DNA of 64,000 nt from Paramacrobiotus metropolitanus. Lineage: Eukaryota; Tardigrada; Eutardigrada; Parachela; Macrobiotidae. Made by a program: the position numbers and the translations under genes. Where the stretch lies: NCBI RefSeq assembly GCF_019649055.1, contig NW_026570231.1, forward strand, positions 682,001-746,000, given 5' to 3'. The notes under the pieces were generated by a model. It had not been told where the DNA came from. It did not search any database and worked only from the letters and a program-made list of their open reading frames with translations. Shown piece by piece: positions 22,911-31,384 of the stretch (the stretch's first letter is position 1; the number at the start of each line of letters is the position of its first letter).

Positions 22911-23542
22911 CTATAGACATGTACAGAAGTAGTTCTACTGTACTGCCTGTACATAGGCTGAATTATTAGCCCTATTACCTTTTATTTTACGGGAAGCATT
23001 TGAATACTAATACTTCCCAATATTTATAGGGTAAAAATAAAATAATAACAAAAATACAGTTTTGGCAGGAACTGTATGTAATGTATAATAAATAATAATG
23101 CTGGTATAGCTAACTTTACAATTAGATGGGCGTGGCGCAGCATTGTGAACGTGTGGCCGCCGGCCGGCATGACCATTTGCTCTGCGCATGCCATTGCCGA
23201 CACCATGCAACCCTGGTGAGCCTTGTAGACAGCCCATTAACAGCTAGCAGCAACACGCCCCTAAGACCACTACCACTGGTGCTGCCTTAACAGGGAGGAC
23301 CGCCCTCTCTATTCCTATACTACAGTCCTAACAGCAAGTAACGATGGATGCGAATAAAGTTCTCAAGTATGAAAAGTTAGACTTCAAGAATCCGGAGACC
23401 TCGAGTTCGTTTTCATCATTCAATAGTCCAAGATTTATGCTCTTGACGCACTTATTTCTGCAAGAACCGTCAAACGGAATTCTTTAGACTAATTTCTGGC
23501 GAAATTAGCTATTGGTGATTTGTCGCTTTTCGTCATATAATG

Positions 23543-23608
23543 CTGAGATCCACCATTTCAGGTTCGCCGCTCCTGCTGAGATCCACCATTTCAGGTTCGT
23601 CGCTCCTG
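23543..23608 (+). repeat. two-copy tandem repeat of 33 bp
   Basis: CTGAGATCCACCATTTCAGG plus following bases is repeated directly at 23543 and 23576 with one or two differences. It abuts the palindromic MITE-like element. Confidence 0.65.
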
Positions 23609-23625
23609 AAAATTTGCTTTTACAG

Positions 23626-23752
23626 TAGACAATTTGGACAAAGTGCGGCAGTAGCAATACAAATGGCTAAAGCCGTCTCGTAGACGCACGACGGAACGGC
23701 TATTGCTACAGCCATTGTTATTGCTACTGCCGCATTTTGCCCAAATTGTCTA
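23626..23752. mobile_element. 127-bp MITE-like palindrome
   Basis: The ends TAGACAATTTGG and CCAAATTGTCTA are exact inverses, and the similarity continues inward over about 55 bp (GCGGCAGTAGCAATA...TATTGCTACTGCCGC with small gaps). TA on both sides would fit a TA target duplication (Tc1/mariner type). It has no coding capacity. Confidence 0.6.
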
Positions 23753-23979
23753 GTAATTCGGTAAATACTCTGCGACCTGCGTACATCAGTGCTTCTTTTA
23801 CCGTTGTCGATCTGAAACTTGATAACAGTTATCAGAAATATATTCTAGTTCCAACATCAAAATAGCCGCCAGTCACGTGATTCGAAACTAAAAATACGGC
23901 TAACCTTCTAGATCTTATGTGATCGAGGATTGGTCTTACGACCACCGGACTGCAGATTAAGAAATACCCGCCTTATAAT

Positions 23980-26900
23980 ATGGACGCCAGGGCCACGTTT
24001 TTTATAATAGCTTTAGAACGGCTCGACGAAGCTGGAAATAAGGGAATTGAAGAACTGCAAGATGTGGCCGTTACCATACAGTCTGAAACTCAGAACGAAA
24101 ACTTCAGCTTGGAGTCTCTTCTCGCCATAAAAAACGGAATTCCTGAAACCTCACCGTATGACACAGTGCGCTTACAAGGATTTCTTATAACAAGCTTAAG
24201 CGGATGTGTCGCGCTTAAAAGCACTGGAGACGGTAACTGTTTGTACAATTCAATTGCTGTTTCGGTAAATGGACAGGAATCGTTATCGAGGGAGTATCGA
24301 GTACGTGCAGGGCTGCTGATGATACTAGAACCAGAGCGCATGACTTTTAGTCCGGAGCAGCAGGTAATCGACACTTATGAGGTCCACCCTTGGCGGTACC
24401 GGTCTTTATTGGCGCAGTTTGCCGAAACCTGCCCGCACCGGTATCACGTTGCAACTGCTTTTTTAAACAAAGAAACATTTGACGAAATTCCGCGATGCGG
24501 CCCAGGTAGTGAAAATTGAATCAGCGTAATATTACCCACAGAAATGGAACTTTGGATTCAGAACGATGCCGAAAACATCGTGAAACCAAATCGATGGGCA
24601 TGCCGGAACTGTATCATTGCTGTCGCAACGTCGTTGCAGGTGGAGATAGTTATTTTACGGCCAAAGGTATGCTATGTTTTCTAATGACGTTTGGTCTTAA
24701 GACCAGCTTACCAAATGCACGGTTGCAGGGATACTCCTCTTTCCTGGTGCGACCGAATTCACCCTGTGGAAGAAGAATTTATATATTATGGGAGACAAAT
24801 CACTTTGCTCCAGTGCAGCTTGATACAAGAGCCAAACAATACCTGTCCGCGGTAATCATTGAAGCTATGCATCGAAAGCGCGACAAAAATTCCAGCGGAT
24901 TATCATTGTTTTGCCTTTCTTGCATTTTGTACCCAAAAAAGACCGACTGTAGCAAACAAATCTTAACAGATTCTGATTTTTACGATTTTCCAAGTCCGAT
25001 CACACCAGAAAAGCAAATGAAAAAACGCAAGGAAGGAAGTCAAACCAATAAAACTTGCCCCGTGGAATCCAGTAGCTCCCGGTCCGCATCATTAGTGCCT
25101 CAACTGAAAAAGCGCAAAACGTATCTCCAGCAGCCTGACCTGCCCCCGAAAGCAGTAAAGTGCGCCACCGACGATGAAAGACATCTGTCCCACTCAGGAA
25201 CTCGGCTTAAATTTTCTGAATCAGGTCAGAATGGGACCATGTTACGGAAACATTTCTGAATTTCGACTTACCGGACGATTTAGATCTTTTCCAAGAACAG
25301 TCGAATGCTGAAGTTTCTACAGGTAATATAATGGTTAATCGTTTTTACGATATGGCTGCATGCAGCACGCTGGCTAATGAGAATATGTTTTTGCAGGAAA
25401 AGCCACGGTCAAGTCTGTCGAAATCGAACGTAAGCATTTGTCTTGCAACATCTTACGTGTTATACTGCGAAAATCCTTAAATGCCTTTACATACTTAGGG
25501 GATCGCGTTCGCGCCGTATTATTGGAAATTTACGGAAACGAAATCGAAAATCCTGAGTTTTGCACCAAAGGAATTTTCAGCAATCGCACTGTGGAAGTTA
25601 TGGAAAATTTAACACGATCAGTACAAAATAATGAGGTAGTTTGCACAATTGTTGGAAGTTGATGTGGTCTTACGACCAATTATCTTCGTTTAGGATTTGG
25701 ACGCCACTCAAAAAAAGCTTATCCGCGAACGAATGCGATTTTTTATGAAGGCGGTTGCAGAACAGGCGGCTGTAGGCACAGTTTGGCGGACGGAAAATTA
25801 TTTTACAAGGATAAACTGGCCAAGAAAAAGCATATCCTCAAATTTGTAGACGTTTTTGAATTTGCGTGGAATATTCATCTTCTGCCTTCACAAGCATGCG
25901 TTGCGCGAAGCGCGGAAAGCCTGGCAAAAGAGTTGTCGCGCTCTGTGTTCATTAAGGATGGACATCGGTTGATGGAGAGTATTAAATCCGTTTGTGCTGG
26001 TTGTCAAATCACGAGAGCAACAAAGCAGCTTATGCCTTATGTGCCAAAAATCAGAAGGACCACCGAATTGATGGAGCGGATTCAAATCGATCTCGTTGAT
26101 ATGGCACCCGATACGGAAAAGCAAATGCAAACAAATCTCGGCCAGTTTCGCTACGTTCTTTCCATAACAGAATGTTTCAGCTGATTTTGTTTTTTATTCC
26201 CTATTAGAAACAAGACAGCCGAAGAAATTCATGCACAGTTGGTAACCTTTTTTGTGGATGAAGGTTGTCCAAAAATTCTACAGAGTGACAACGGAAAAGT
26301 TTCCATTAATAAGCTGGTAAAAGACCTTTTGGAAAATGCAAGCGTTGGGTTTGTGCATGGTAGGCCATACCATCCACAGTCACAGGTAACTGTCTTTTTC
26401 GAATTTCTAGATTTTAAAAAAATCTTCATTTTAATGTTACAGGGACAAGTGGAACGTCTAAATCAAAAGCTGAAGCGAGCTCTTGCATTTATGATGGCTA
26501 ATTTGGACCCTGTAACGCAAGGTTTATTATGGCCGTATTTTTTGCCATCCGTCCAGCACTTATTGAATACAACACTACATAATTCCACAAATATGACGCC
26601 GTTTGAAGTTTACAAGGGGTACGCTTCTGCGCTAAGCCTTGAAAGAATAGGTAAGATTTCCCAACCTGGTCTCAAGACCTACCAAACACTTTCAGTTGTA
26701 GAATTGGATCCGGTGCCATGGAAAGCGGAGCACGTCAGTATGCTGAAACGACTTATGCCTGAGCCACCAGATGATGAGTTTGCTGATGTTTATGCAATGG
26801 AACAGTATGAAAACGACATTGATGAAAAGGCTGAAGAAAACCTTCGACACCTAGATGATCTGCCAGAACCGCTGCGGTCGCAGGCTCTACACGCGCTGGA

Positions 26901-27771
26901 ACAGCTGCATTATTGACGTGCTTGCATGCAAACATCTGTCATCGAAAATGTAGAGCGGAGACTTTTTAAAAACATCTACGGACCAGCAGTGAAGGCTAGG
27001 CAGATACGAATCGAAGTTGGCGATGTGTATATTTGGCGTCCGCATCAAAAAAGACGGAAATTATCTGGTCGTGTAAAGGTGAAGATTGTGCGAATTATGG
27101 AACAAGAGAAAACGCTCTCCTCAAGATACCAGGTGGAATATTTCAAGAACGGTGACCGGGAACCTCCCATAAAGACTAAAGAAAATTCTTGGTTTTTCAC
27201 AGTGCTTTTGGTTAACACAAACGAATTATCAATTTATCGGCGCCGTATTGCTACCCAAAATGGGGTCCATGAAGAGCGCATGCCAGAAGAAAGCACTATT
27301 GGCTGTTTATCAGATATTCACAAGGACGCAAATGCGGTGGGAAGAGGCGTGCACGAATTTGCTGACACAATGCGTGCTTATTTGAAAGAAACGAGTTGTT
27401 TGGCAAAACGCGTGCAACCAGGATTACTAGACGGAGCAGACGCAGAGAAGTTTTTTCATTTGTTGGATCAAGGTGCAGCAGCTTTCATAACGGAGACGGA
27501 GCGCGGAAAAGGTTCCAAATATCTGGAAGACGTCTTAGCTGGGATAAACGAGTTGCGAGATTCAACAGGGTTTTTGTACTGGATGAGCGGTTTATTTAAA
27601 TGGGAAGCAACGACGTCCAAATCGCCTTTTAAAATAAGAAATATCCTGGCCGGGCAAGATCTTTACCACAAAGAATCTTGCATGCGATGTATGGAAACTC
27701 AACCTGATTGTGGGCATTTGTGCTGTACAGATTCTCTGAATGAACTCTGTGCAAAACGAGGTATGAGTTAA
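23980..27771 (+). pseudogene. OTU cysteine protease-integrase fusion of the Ginger-like element, interrupted
   Basis: Exons: 23980-24505, 24542-24666, 24729-25224, 25284-25322, 25397-25635, 25694-26385, 26443-26650, 26696-27771. The N-terminus is an OTU deubiquitinase-like fold: catalytic pair in TGDGNCLYNSI (Asp, Cys), REYRVRAGLL helix, and the closing His in ILWETNHFAPVQ. A charged linker follows. The C-terminal half has an integrase zinc region (CAGCQ), then DDE residues in QIDLVDM, LQSDNGK and GQVERLN, and after the core a small beta-rich segment (GDVYIWRPHQ...) like the post-integrase GPY/F or chromo-type module. Breaks: a frameshift near 25770-25783 and in-frame TGA at 26182 (right after the ITECFS segment) and at 26914. 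Reading frame and homology continue across each break. Probably recently inactivated, or misassembled at single bases. Confidence 0.7.
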
Positions 27772-28061
27772 TCTACTAATATGCAATTTGTTATGGTTCT
27801 AAATGTACTAGAAACTCTTGATTGTAAACTAAAGATTATAGCGACAGCAACTCTTGTTGCTTTATTTCAGCAATAAGAACAGCATCTGAATGCAAGAAGC
27901 AAAAAATTCTTTAAGCTGAAGCATTTTACCATAAAAAAGTCGGCACGAAAATTCAAAAGCTAACATAAAACAGTCATTTGGTCTCAAGAGCAGGTCTCGT
28001 CGCTAAAGAAACAAAAGTATCGGTACTATTTCGACGAAACATCAATAAACTGAAGACCCGT

Positions 28062-30260
28062 TCACAATAAATCTGTAAAATAATTTCCGTTAAGCTTTAA
28101 AGTAGACGTTGCTGGATCCGCAGATTCCACTGCATCGGCTGGCGCATAATAGATGTCAGCCGGATCGATTTGAGCAGGTCCAACTTTTGCGTATACAAGA
28201 ACCCCTGGCTGAAGAACACCGTAATCGCTGGTGTCAAACTTTTCAGTAGAGGCGTTCGCTTTTCCGCCATAATACAGGTTCAGCATTTTCGAAATCATCA
28301 GGTTCTTGCAGGGGGTTTTCACAACGTTGTGCAGCTGTAAAAAGCGTAATAATGTTAGCCTTGGTCTTAAGACCTAGCGCACAAAATCTTGAACTTGGAC
28401 AATAATAAAGAAGTGCGAAATATGAACTTGGTCTTAAGACCACACATGCAACGGCTTACTCGAGCTCGTTCTAGCTTTAACAAACAAGTTTCCCGCTGGT
28501 ATTCTGAATTTTCAAGTCGAGAATTCTGCAAAAAAAACAGGTAAAATATTTCAAATCTAGCGCCACAAGCTCAAATTTCTACCTGGCAATCAATTTGTTC
28601 GGCTGCAAGTTGTGAAAGCGCGTGATCCAGCTTTTCCTTTAGTGCCGCGGCTTCTGCACGTGCACTAGCCAAATCCTGCAAAAACGGAAAAACCCGTTAA
28701 CTTAAACCTGCGTTAACCTCTTTTCAAATGACAGACGTCGTTTGAATTGGCTGGTGCCGTATCCGAAGGGACCGGAGTTTGCGGAGATCCTTTCAGTCTT
28801 TTATGAGGATTCTGTTTTTTGCTGGAAGCCGACTGCGTTTCATCTGGGTCTTTAGCATCGTCCGCATCTTCTTCTGCAGGAATCTCAGCTGCCTCTTTTA
28901 CTGCAAAATCGGCGTTTAAAAACAGCAAAAAAATAAAGAAAAAATTTTACTACCGTATTTCTCAATTTTGTTCCAGTCTCCTTCTGCAATAATTTCTTCA
29001 AACGCCCGCTCAATCATTTCACTGGTCTTCAAGCCCAGTTTTATTCTTCGGAAAATAATAGGTCCGATTTCTTTTTTCTCGCTTTCCATGCCTTTGCTCG
29101 ACTTTTTTTCTTTAGGAATGTGCTTTATCTCTCCGGCATCGGCTTTTACCATGAATCGGTTAAGAACCGCAAATGTCTTCACTGGGAGATGTGCGCATTG
29201 GTAGATGAATTTGTACGAACATTGTTGCAGCGTCTTTAACTGAAAAGAGACCAGGTTGCGTTAGCTTTGAATCTCTCTAACCTAAGGTCTGGTCTCAAGA
29301 CCAAAACATTCGCATAGCAAGAACTCACCGAAACAATCTTAGCAAAAGTCTGCTTGGTCTTGAGACCAGTGCTCAAAAGTATTACTCACTGGAATTCCAG
29401 TAACTTTGCTGATCATCTTGTTATCGGACTGCACTTGCTTGCTGGGCTTCTGCAGGTCACCTGCTTCTTGCTGGATGTTTTGTGCGTTGTAGCAAATCTT
29501 TCGGAACAACCGAAGGGTGTCAAATACGGTTTCCTCGCGTTGGACGCTTGTTTCCGTATTACGTGCACGCGATAAGAACAAGCACCGATTGTCGTCCAGG
29601 TCCACGTAGATGGCGACCTATAATCAAATTTTGTTCATTTGAGCAAATCAAGTAAAAAGAATCTACCTTAACAAGAGAATCCATTGTCCATCTGCTTTTG
29701 CAGTCTTTCACAAGAGCTAATATGCTCTCCAAACGATGCTGACCTAAACACACCACTTCACGTCACCATTGCACCATATTAATAAACTTAGTTAACAAAA
29801 CAAACCGTCTAGTATTTCCACGACCAAAATTCTGCTTTCTGCTTCTTTGATCAGAACATCTCGTGTTTTGCCATGACTTTGGACCACACCAGTGAGAGAA
29901 ATCTGAGCAGATTTTGGGTCGGAATTTTTCAGGCTCTCAATAACGACGTCTCGGTAATCTTCGTACATTATCCGTGACTGATGCTGAGCGGAAGGAGCAC
30001 GCAGGTTTCTGATTGGTAATGACACTTCGCCTACTCAACAAACTCAACTTAACAAGCACTAAACACGGCACATATGAAGCAGAGACCTTTGTAATTACAC
30101 AGAAACGCGTCCTTCACTTCCTTCTTGTAGGGCGATACTTCCATTTGAGAGGCACCAGCGGACGCCACGCGTTTATCCTTGGCGGTCTGCAATTTAATAG
30201 TTAAACCAAGGCGATGCTTTGTAAGCAAACCAAATCTTCAAACTCTTCTGTTTGAGCCAT
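28062..30260 (-). CDS. companion gene of the Ginger-like element, coiled-coil protein of unknown function
   Basis: Ten exons join without leftover bases to 521 aa: 30260-30207, 30186-30087, 30030-29806, 29743-29667, 29617-29390, 29239-28954, 28900-28737, 28675-28583, 28525-28460, 28334-28062. No domain recognised. Visible: an N-terminal mixed region, a Lys/Glu-rich stretch (HIPKEKKSSKGMESEKKEIG), an acidic low-complexity linker (AEEDADDAKDPDETQ), a coiled coil (ASARAEAAALKEKLDHALSQ continuing about 50 residues), and a globular-looking C-terminus (CKNLMISKMLNLYYGG). It shares the element's 12-bp palindrome, with two copies in each of two introns and one 2 bp before the ATG. The first intron would be only 20 nt; if it is not real, the start may be the Met in exon 2 (ASQMEVSPYKK). 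Unlike the + gene it has no stop or frameshift. Confidence 0.6.
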
Positions 30261-30435
30261 CTGGTCGTAAGACCAAGCCAAAGTAACTTTATCAGTTAAA
30301 CATTTCTACATGAAATTTTAAGAACAAGCACATTTATGTTTTTTAGAGCTTTTATTATGCAAGAAATCACGTGACTGCCTCGTGGCTTTTTACAAAGTAG
30401 GGAAATTTGGTAACCTTTTCTTTGTTATTTAATTA

Positions 30436-30758
30436 TTATTTAATCGTTTTCACCTCTTTGTTCTGTGAATGATCGGCCTCCTCGCTTTTCCTAAAAAACC
30501 GGAAAGAAAAATATATGAACAGTTGTAGTTGCTGCAGACTGGTAAGAGCTAACATAGAAACAAAAACCCATTTAGGAGCCAACACTTGTGTTTACAACCT
30601 AATACTCTTGAAAATGGAAAAATATTGCCTACACTAAATGCAGGATAACAGCCATCATCAAATAAAATTAAGTATTGGTAACATCTTTACCGTTTATCAA
30701 TCGGTTCCATGTTATTGAGATCGTCCATGTCGGTTTTGCGGCCGTCTTTCAGAGACAT
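30436..30758 (-). CDS. possible 40-aa two-exon small protein
   Basis: Exons 30758-30691 and 30490-30436 join in phase to a 40-residue, highly charged peptide beginning MSLKDGRKTDMDDLNN and ending NKEVKTIK. Good acceptor (ttttttag) and a GT donor (cg|gtaaag). No homologue recognised; no signal peptide. It lies outside the putative end of the Ginger-like element. It could be the 5' end of a longer gene or chance. Confidence 0.35.
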
Positions 30759-31230
30759 CACTCAAAACCAGACTCTAAAGATGAACAAGACACTCTTGCT
30801 GACAATAATTAGCTTTCAGCCATGATAGGAAGCAATAATATCGCAAGCGGTAAATCGAGCATGAGGAGCTTTGAGATAACCACAGGATAAGCTGAAGCAG
30901 ATCAGAACCTCATATCAGGCCTCTCAGCAGCACTGCTTACCACGTCGCACGCAAACGTTTCCAGAATTCAGATAGATTCTATTATAAAGATTACCTCACA
31001 TTAAGTGAATATTGTGTAAACTGTTAGCAATAGTACTAAAATGACTTACATAAATAAATCAGTTATTCTACAGAAAGTGAAAAAATTCAGCGAATTCACA
31101 AGCTGTAGACTCAAAGAACTTTCAAAGAAAGAAACTGGAAAGCGAAGCCGCTGCACGAACTAGCACGCAATCCCGAAACGAATGGAATGAACTGAAATGA
31201 CGTGGTGCTGCTGATGATTACTCACTTTTA
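30759..31230. other. spacer between the two transposons
   Basis: AT-rich sequence, no supported coding exon. It ends at the 10-bp duplication flanking the MULE. Confidence 0.4.
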
Positions 31231-31240
31231 CATGTCAGAG

Positions 31241-31384
31241 ACCTAAACATCACGGCTGATCCAATCCTCCTGGAGGGATTGGATGGGTGCTATTCACGCA
31301 CTTCGGTTCATTTTATGGACTTTAGCTTCGTGCTCAGTGGCAGCGATTACACATCCAATCTGCCACAAAATCCATTGGAAATTG
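31241..31384 (+). repeat. left TIR of the MULE
   Basis: 144 bp matching the reverse complement of 40929-41072 with about ten differences. It contains an internal palindrome, ATCCAATCC...GGATTGGAT at 31259-31284, which could be a transposase-binding hairpin. Confidence 0.92.

What the first reader, a model, noticed from the sequence alone, without database searches (positions are those of the whole stretch)
23932..30274. A 12-bp palindrome is repeated through the non-coding parts of both genes of one transposon
Nine perfect copies and one imperfect copy of GGTCTYAMGACC lie within 6.4 kb and, as far as I could see, nowhere else in the 64 kb. With the exon models given here, every copy is in an intron, just before a start codon or in the 3' gap; two introns hold two copies each. 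The TACG version sits before both start codons in mirror orientation. Ordinary subterminal repeats cluster at transposon ends; spread through introns and promoters they suggest a regulatory system: transposase/host repressor sites, coordinated expression or silencing, or introns that grew from a common palindromic insert. I know of no described element with this arrangement.
Basis: partly seen in the sequence, partly recalled or inferred. Interest (0 to 1): 0.8.

Follow-up and report, generated by a model that had tools for sequence, protein, structure and literature searches.

The report
Transposon peppered with its own palindrome
A rare animal jumping gene carries about ten copies of a private 14-letter palindrome outside its coding sequence, and a distant cousin in the same genome carries a matching set with one mirrored letter change, which suggests that each family marks its own DNA for a protein that recognises it.

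Summary
GGTCTYAMGACC occurs 10 times (9 exact) at window 23932-30274, in no modelled exon. In the 170-Mb genome 29 of 35 exact places lie in three copies of this one element. The element is an 8.2-kb DNA transposon with TGTAG inverted repeats, 5-bp target duplications, a gypsy-type DD35E integrase with an OTU-like region, and a second gene.

The decisive result is a second, diverged family in the same genome (integrase 48-54% identical, gene 2 33%). It lacks this word but carries its own set of ten, TGATCTYAAGATCA instead of TGGTCTYAMGACCA: one symmetrical half-site change. Several sites sit in the same introns; in one gene-2 intron both families have sites at nucleotides 22 and 87, although the sequence around them aligns no better than the best of 200 shuffles. 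A non-coding relative carries four sites.

I read these as family-specific DNA sites for an element-encoded dimeric protein, most likely gene 2. Gene 2 has a DGQHR/ParB-like motif, but every database match is below threshold. The closest described arrangement is the plant VANDAL/VANC anti-silencing system. Binding and function are untested.

The parts
23223..31242 (+). Element E1, window copy; its right end (about 82 bp with the right inverted repeat) is missing
   Evidence: aligned with full-length copies L001 (C2) and L002 (C3), 97.6-97.7% identity
23223..23266 (+). Left terminal inverted repeat, TGTAGACAGCCC...
   Evidence: matches the inverted right end of L001/L002 over 37-44 bp; those copies have 5-bp duplications ACAGC and CTTGT
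23980..27771 (+). Gene 1: OTU-like region, then gypsy-type integrase (D,D35E) and a Cys-rich C-terminus; broken in this copy (stop near 26914, 1-bp length differences between copies); exons by hand, uncertain at 24729-25322
28065..30260 (-). Gene 2: 510-aa model, 10 exons; DGQHR motif split by an intron; coiled-coil-like C-terminus
23931..23944 (+). Site 1, TGGTCTTACGACCA, 35 nt before the gene-1 ATG
24692..24705 (+). Site 2, TGGTCTTAAGACCA, in intron 24667-24728; the matching intron of E2 has a site
25665..25678 (+). Site 3, TGGTCTTACGACCA, in intron 25636-25693; the matching intron of E2 has a site
26667..26680 (+). Site 4, TGGTCTCAAGACCT, in intron 26651-26695; the matching intron of E2 has a site
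27979..27992 (+). Site 5, TGGTCTCAAGAGCA (12-mer exact in the other two copies), after the gene-1 stop; E2 has a site about 20 nt after its gene-1 stop
28362..28375 (-). Site 6, in gene-2 intron 28459-28335 with site 7
28429..28442 (-). Site 7, 67 bp from site 6 in the same intron
29290..29303 (-). Site 8, nt 87 of gene-2 intron 29389-29240; E2 has a site at nt 87 of the matching intron
29355..29368 (-). Site 9, nt 22 of the same intron; E2 has a site at nt 22
30262..30275 (-). Site 10, 1 nt before the gene-2 ATG; inside the 80-bp tandem duplication of L001/L002

Best explanation
The palindromes are family-specific recognition sites for a dimeric DNA-binding protein that the transposon itself encodes. 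Each family keeps about ten sites spread along its DNA wherever coding does not forbid it, so the protein marks or coats the whole element. The most likely binder is the gene-2 product, a protein with a DGQHR/ParB-like motif followed by what looks by eye like a helix-turn-helix and a coiled coil. The most likely use is to keep the element's chromatin open or to regulate its own two genes, as VANC proteins do for VANDAL transposons. Shown: the sites, their confinement to the elements, the coherent family-specific change, the shared positions, and their presence in a relative without long open frames. Inferred: that a protein binds them as DNA, that it is gene 2, and the role.
For:: 29 of 35 exact places in the genome lie in three copies of E1; a diverged family E2 (3 copies) has its own palindrome. 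E2 has 10 sites of type TGATCTYAAGATCA (6 exact, 3 with one and 1 with two mismatches) in each copy, no E1-type site within 1 mismatch, and E1 has no E2-type site within 1 mismatch; 20 of 22 exact E2-type places lie in E2 copies or the relative E2n; positions 3 and 12 are complementary in 9 of 10 E1, 10 of 10 E2 and 4 of 4 E2n sites; of 7 introns paired by flanking protein sequence, 6 agree in number of sites (three with one, one with two, two with none); the two-site intron has sites at nt 22 and 87 in both families. E2n, which shares only its ends with E2 by blastn, keeps four sites; around the DG(Q/N)HR motif gene 2 of both families weakly matches ParB/Srx-type models (GmrSD_N 0.00041, DndB 0.0036, ParBc_2 0.020, DGQHR 0.058, ParB-like partition 0.0065).
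Against: No binding data exist. The gene-2 family matches are all below curated cut-offs where one is given, and unrelated weak hits appear too (MDM1 0.00075 on the coiled-coil part, DUF1015 0.039, DUF5824 0.048, ATLF 0.17, a phage phosphoesterase family 0.12). hhalign against 11 bacterial ParB proteins gives P 0.051 with a probability of only 1%, covering only the box around DGQHR. An AlphaFold model of one gene-2 exon found no solved relative (best E 1.9); the PDB sequence search gave one chance hit (E 5.3). One of 7 paired introns disagrees (E2 has a site, E1 none), and E1's two start-codon sites have no E2 counterpart. No DNA methylase gene was found in this genome, so DNA demethylation, the best-known effect of VANC, may not apply.
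Confidence: 0.55

Rival explanations
1. The sites are bound by the integrase/transposase (gene 1) and help assemble the transposition complex or make it specific, like the subterminal 12-bp TnpA repeats of En/Spm or internal repeats of the P element, but spread further inside.
For: E2n, in which no integrase match was found, keeps four sites within about 700 bp of its ends together with E2-like inverted repeats; the gene-1 C-terminal open frame is 37% identical between families.
Against: In E1 and E2 the sites are spread along the whole element, not gathered at the ends. The fold model of the gene-1 C-terminus was too poor to judge (pLDDT 35). The En/Spm and P-element comparison is recalled.
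Confidence: 0.2
2. The sites are transcriptional or chromatin elements for a host protein that the transposon exploits.
For: In E1 two sites stand directly before the two start codons; many sites lie in transcribed parts.
Against: Two families in one host use two different, internally uniform versions, and the E1 word is not enriched in the rest of the genome (7 strand-hits outside against about 27 expected). E2, as I read its start codons, has no site directly before them.
Confidence: 0.12
3. The sites act as RNA: short hairpins (5-bp stem, 4-nt loop) in introns and leaders that affect splicing, export or silencing.
For: The change from G-C to A-T keeps the stem.
Against: Read in the sense direction the centre occurs in both orientations (TCAA and TTGA in introns of both families), which fits a DNA palindrome better than a fixed loop. 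Against this, the TTAC centre is in sense orientation in 3 of 3 cases, too few to tell. The distance to the donor varies. E2n has sites without long open frames. Rfam finds nothing at its gathering scores.
Confidence: 0.08
4. The pattern is neutral: a short repeat spread within an ancestor and was inherited.
For: An 80-bp tandem duplication shows that copies can arise by duplication.
Against: Neutral inheritance would not make about 20 positions differ together as one symmetrical variant, nor keep two sites at nt 22 and 87 of an intron whose alignment score no longer exceeds the best of 200 shuffles, nor keep all 10 sites of E1 out of exons.
Confidence: 0.05

Closest known systems
VANDAL transposons and VANC anti-silencing proteins (Arabidopsis; PMC5735166 passages, PMC10398659 abstract)
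   Same: A short motif is repeated in introns, intergenic and terminal non-coding parts of one transposon family; related families have different motifs; motif regions are gained by tandem duplication; the binder is encoded by the element.
   Different: Plant elements (MuDR-type, recalled) against an animal integrase-type element; the motif here is a 14-bp palindrome, mostly single sites rather than tandem arrays; the proteins are not known to be related; no DNA methylase was found in this host; binding and anti-silencing are shown for VANC and not here.
Ginger DNA transposons (PMC2836005, abstract and Results part 1)
   Same: Gypsy-type integrase with DD35E spacing, TGTNR ends, inverted repeats of 40-270 bp, introns, OTU protease region in some.
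   Different: 5-bp target duplications with mostly NCWGN targets (not CCGG or RTATAY), OTU-like region before rather than after the integrase, a second gene, 8-12 kb length, dispersed palindromes; GPY/F unclear.
Bacterial ParB-parS and DGQHR/DndB/GmrS proteins (PMC8494293 introduction; PMC4619093 passages)
   Same: Scattered short sites on the DNA served by a protein with a ParB/Srx-type N domain, an HTH and a C-terminal dimerisation part; gene 2 has DGQHR (E1) or DGNHR (E2) and a downstream QR pair.
   Different: Homology is below threshold in every search; no ParA partner was looked for; the HTH of gene 2 is judged by eye; no CTP binding or spreading is known.
En/Spm TnpA sites and P-element internal repeats (recalled)
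   Same: Short repeats bound by an element-encoded protein.
   Different: Those sites cluster near the ends.

Membership tests
Ginger1 | 4-bp target duplication CCGG or CCGT | tested here: not met
   5-bp duplications; 5 of 6 copies exact (ACAGC, CTTGT, CCTGG, ACTGC, ACAGA), one with a mismatch (CCAGT/CCTGT)
Ginger1 | GPY/F motif in the integrase | tested here: inconclusive
   absent from the E2 stretch checked, which stops before the C-terminal exon; a GPY string stands at the very start of the E2 open frame, where I judge the frame not to be that of the exon (E1 has ELDPVPW there)
Ginger2/Tdd | Gypsy-like DDE integrase, TGTNR ends, 4- or 5-bp target duplication | tested here: met
   Pfam rve E 5.1e-13 for E2, over its cut-off; 0.0016, under it, for the window copy; DD35E; TGTAG ends and 5-bp duplications; 4 or 5 bp for Ginger2 from PMC10045372
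Ginger2/Tdd | Absence of GPY/F and YPYY motifs | tested here: inconclusive
   GPY/F as above; YPYY not examined
Ginger2/Tdd | H2C2 zinc finger | tested here: inconclusive
   a CxxC pair is present (CAGC/CKGC); the two His are not clear by eye
Ginger2/Tdd | Integrase tree places it in the Ginger2 clade | not tested
   no reference Ginger or Tdd sequences were at hand
Ginger2/Tdd | RTATAY target preference | tested here: not met
   six target duplications, five of them NCWGN
VANDAL/VANC-type system | Motif repeated in non-coding parts including introns, family-specific between relatives | tested here: met
VANDAL/VANC-type system | MuDR-type element (recalled) with a VANC homologue | tested here: not met
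   the transposase is rve-type; no VANC-like Pfam match for gene 2; no VANC sequence was compared directly
VANDAL/VANC-type system | Element-encoded protein binds the motif and removes silencing marks | not testable with these tools
   needs binding and chromatin experiments
ParB/parS-type system | ParB/Srx-fold N domain | tested here: inconclusive
   several sub-threshold ParB/Srx-type matches around the same motif in both families; hhalign P 0.051, probability 1%, against P 0.41 for an unrelated profile; TIGR00180 finds nothing over cut-off in the genome, searched exon by exon
ParB/parS-type system | HTH domain that reads the palindrome | tested here: inconclusive
   HTH-like residues by eye only; the model of the following exon is helical but matches nothing
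ParB/parS-type system | CTP-dependent loading and spreading | not testable with these tools
   biochemistry needed

The most novel reading that the evidence does not exclude
A eukaryotic DNA transposon carries a ParB-parS-like system of its own: gene 2 encodes a ParB/DGQHR-type clamp that loads at the dispersed palindromes and spreads over the element, giving it a self-specific chromatin domain. The two families have diverged in both protein and site, so that neither protects the other.
Probability: 0.18. Interest if true: 0.92.

Novelty: new variant of a known kind. Interest (0 to 1): 0.75.

Why it matters
Element-specific self-marking through short dispersed motifs is, in the listings I saw, described only for plant VANDAL elements. 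An independent case in an animal, on an integrase-type element with a different transposase and in a genome where no DNA methylase was found, would show that transposons can evolve sequence-specific self-recognition more than once. The pair of families gives a direct test: two proteins, two sites that differ by one symmetrical letter, and an obvious swap experiment. A binder with a ParB/DGQHR-type domain would also add a protein class to transposon biology.

Tried and rejected
Genome-wide DNA searches with the E1 left end and the E2 left end found only the known copies. The search with the end of E2n found E2n and the E2 right ends. Integrase searches (only the best 150 candidates scored in each) gave, besides E1 and E2, many matches at 23-40% identity; three of those loci (L032-L034) were fetched and show no dispersed palindrome of this strength. 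Gene-2 searches found only the six known copies. Viral-contig scans with gene 2, the integrase and ParB, and a genome-contig scan with gene 2, gave no relatives. Phage and plasmid protein searches with gene 2 gave only chance-level hits.

The six exact E1 words outside the elements, and the E2 words on C8 and on C11 at 461136, show no blastn similarity to E1 or E2 (8 loci). Three TGGTCTTAGGACCA hits belong to one short repeat with 207-bp direct repeats and a single site each. The AlphaFold model of the gene-1 C-terminus was unusable (pLDDT 35) and was not searched. RNA families: none at gathering scores.

Rejected: within-family conservation as evidence, because copies are too alike; and a claim that the word is avoided in the host, because the expectation is only a Markov estimate from the window.
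Full report
OBSERVATION. The palindrome is there as described: 10 sites (9 exact, 1 with one mismatch) between 23932 and 30274, with one other hit in the window at one mismatch. It is not what chance gives: the best near-palindromic 12-mer in this element has 9 places within one mismatch, against a maximum of 4 in 40 Markov shuffles and of 5 in 20 overlapping 8-kb segments of the rest of the window. The unit is longer than 12 bp: T precedes all 10 and A follows 8 of 10, so I write it TGGTCTYAMGACCA.

THE ELEMENT. Two other copies were found through the motif search and fetched. L001 and L002 are full length, about 8.2 kb, 99.5% identical to each other and 97.6-97.7% to the window copy. Ends are TGTAG...CTACA, inverted repeats about 40 bp, target duplications ACAGC and CTTGT, 5 bp (read by eye). 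The window copy lacks the right end from 31243, has an in-frame stop near 26914 and several 1-bp length differences from the others. Gene 1 on the plus strand has an OTU-like region (Pfam OTU E 0.032, below cut-off; DGNC and NHF strings by eye) and a gypsy-type integrase (rve E 0.0016, below cut-off, for the window copy; 5.1e-13, above it, for the second family; D,D35E). Gene 2 on the minus strand is a 510-aa model with ten exons. No reverse transcriptase match appeared among the pieces scanned. All exon models are mine, from GT-AG sites and frame, and are supported by protein similarity between the two families rather than by RNA.

GENOME-WIDE. In 169.8 Mb, GGTCTYAMGACC has 45 strand-hits at 35 places; 29 of the 35 lie in the three copies and 6 are single. 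A Markov estimate from the rest of the window gives about 27 strand-hits by chance; 7 lie outside the copies. The tool's control, the pattern read backwards, has 172, so the word is not common in this genome. The six single places were fetched and show no blastn similarity to the elements.

A SECOND FAMILY WITH ITS OWN WORD. Protein searches found a diverged family, E2, in three copies (C9, two on C18), 12.4 kb, one copy 4 kb shorter. Integrase matches are 48-54% identical, the gene-1 C-terminal open frame 37%, gene 2 33% over 279 aligned positions. A blind count of repeated words in E2 brought up GATCTCAAGATC. With flanks this is TGATCTYAAGATCA: the E1 word with G to A at position 3 and C to T at position 12. 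Each E2 copy has ten sites, 6 exact, 3 with one and 1 with two mismatches; no E1-type site is in E2 and no E2-type site in E1 at one mismatch. In my models 8 of the ten lie in introns, one lies after the gene-1 stop, and one (X 12815) beyond the last exon that I could model. The count test gives 9 places for E2 against at most 3 in 25 shuffles. Exact E2 words occur at 22 places in the genome, 18 in E2 copies, 2 in the relative below, 2 single. A wider pattern, TGNTCTYARGANCA, gives 67 strand-hits (backwards control 47) at 58 places, 34 of them in these elements; the other 24 are scattered, three of them one unrelated repeat. About 20 positions differ together between the families, which neutral drift does not explain.

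POSITIONS ARE KEPT. I paired seven introns by the protein sequence on both sides; the others were not paired. Six of seven agree in the number of sites: three have one in each family, one has two, two have none; one has a site only in E2. In the two-site intron of gene 2 the sites start at nt 22 and nt 87 in both families. Outside the sites 46 of 89 aligned positions agree; the alignment score (-7.5) is high but does not exceed the best of 200 shuffles (-6.0, mean -18.3). None of the seven pairs exceeds its best shuffle (one, before ELDP, equals it at -19.5). In the single-site introns the distance to the donor varies (26 and 8, 30 and 22, 17 and 75), which speaks against a splice signal. Both families also have a site after the gene-1 stop. 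E1's two sites before start codons have no E2 counterpart.

A NON-CODING RELATIVE. Two exact E2 words 80 bp apart on C33 led to E2n, a 2.8-kb element with E2-like inverted repeats and target duplication ACAGA. By blastn it shares only its ends with E2, and its longest open frame is 131 aa. It carries four sites: two exact ones about 320 and 400 bp from the left end, in what looks like a diverged 80-bp tandem, and two with one mismatch, 55 bp apart, about 640-690 bp from the right end. So the sites belong to the element as DNA and not only to its genes.

DNA OR RNA. Positions 3 and 12 match in 23 of 24 sites listed, which fits both a palindrome read by a dimer and a hairpin stem. The centre occurs in both orientations relative to transcription (TCAA and TTGA in introns), which favours DNA; the TTAC centre is in sense orientation in all three cases.

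WHO BINDS. As far as I could see, the two families share only two genes. Gene 2 of E1 reads ILDGQHRLESILAL and of E2 IIDGNHRLRALKEL, with a shared intron position after the G. PMC4619093 (passages) describes DGQHR and DGQQR as marks of DGQHR/DndB-type and GmrS domains, with a QR pair in the former, and places DUF262/GmrS in the ParB/Srx fold. Matches around this motif are GmrSD_N 0.00041, DndB 0.0036, ParBc_2 0.020 (trimmed proteins), DGQHR 0.058 and a phage ParB-like family 0.0065: all weak, mostly from one superfamily, in two proteins 33% identical. Unrelated weak hits appear too (MDM1 0.00075 on the coiled coil; DUF1015 0.039, DUF5824 0.048, ATLF 0.17; a phosphoesterase family 0.12). hhalign to 11 plasmid ParB proteins aligned only the DGQHR box, P 0.051, probability 1%. 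PDB searches by sequence and by an exon model found nothing of note. A HTH-like stretch after the motif is my reading by eye. ParB recognises parS sites through an HTH and is enriched over up to about 15 kb around them (PMC8494293, introduction); a DndB homologue can negatively regulate its own gene cluster (PMC8569181, passage). I therefore hold gene 2 as the likely binder, not as shown.

WHAT IT WORKS LIKE. The nearest described arrangement is VANDAL21/VANC21: a 9-base motif in introns, intergenic and terminal non-coding regions, different motifs for VANC6 targets, and gain through tandem repeats (PMC5735166, passages). E1 shares the layout, the family-specific word and an 80-bp tandem gain. 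It is not a member: the transposase type differs and gene 2 shows no VANC-like Pfam match. No DNA methylase was found in the genome; that search reads exon by exon and its control genomes are prokaryotes, so absence is not proved. If it holds, any anti-silencing would have to act on other marks.

CLASS. The element resembles Ginger2 in ends, integrase and 4-5-bp duplications, and differs in target preference, OTU position, second gene and size; GPY/F could not be settled. No tree was made. The host was not identified; the genome has cadherin-domain sequences, so I take it for an animal.

NOT IN PRINT. Among the papers listed by my searches of an open-licence library (15 of 81; 64: 10 of 17; 93: 12 of 66; 94: 11 of 11; 103: 3 of 3; 106: 8 of 89; titles and abstract starts only) I saw no transposon with a ParB/DGQHR gene and no animal element with dispersed intronic palindromes. 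Subscription papers and Repbase were not searched.

Noticed in passing
L003:7686 to L004:1710 (C9:1136686-1140710): Two of three E2 copies carry, between gene 1 and gene 2, about 4 kb with a minus-strand run of cadherin domains (of six pieces scanned, three pass Pfam Cadherin at 4.6e-11, 2.5e-10 and 1.9e-8, two match weakly, one not); the third copy lacks this stretch. It looks like a captured host gene.
   Followed up: partly
L001, L002; window 30256: An 80-bp tandem duplication around the gene-2 start, with an extra palindrome, is present in two E1 copies and absent from the window copy; E2n has what looks like a diverged 80-bp tandem with two palindromes.
   Followed up: partly
G000 C20:489074, C111:276694, C189:66127 (L035-L037): A repeat of about 1 kb with 207-bp direct terminal repeats, copies 98-99% identical, each with one TGGTCTTAGGACCA; unrelated to the element.
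   Followed up: partly
target duplications of six element copies: Five of six 5-bp target duplications fit NCWGN (ACAGC, CCTGG, ACTGC, ACAGA and CCAGT/CCTGT); CTTGT does not. Possibly a distinct target preference.
   Followed up: no
G000: No Pfam DNA_methylase match at E 0.01 in the whole genome, in a search that reads exon by exon.
   Followed up: no
window 23256-23275: A half-site CTAAGACCA lies close to the left end of E1; it may be chance.
   Followed up: no
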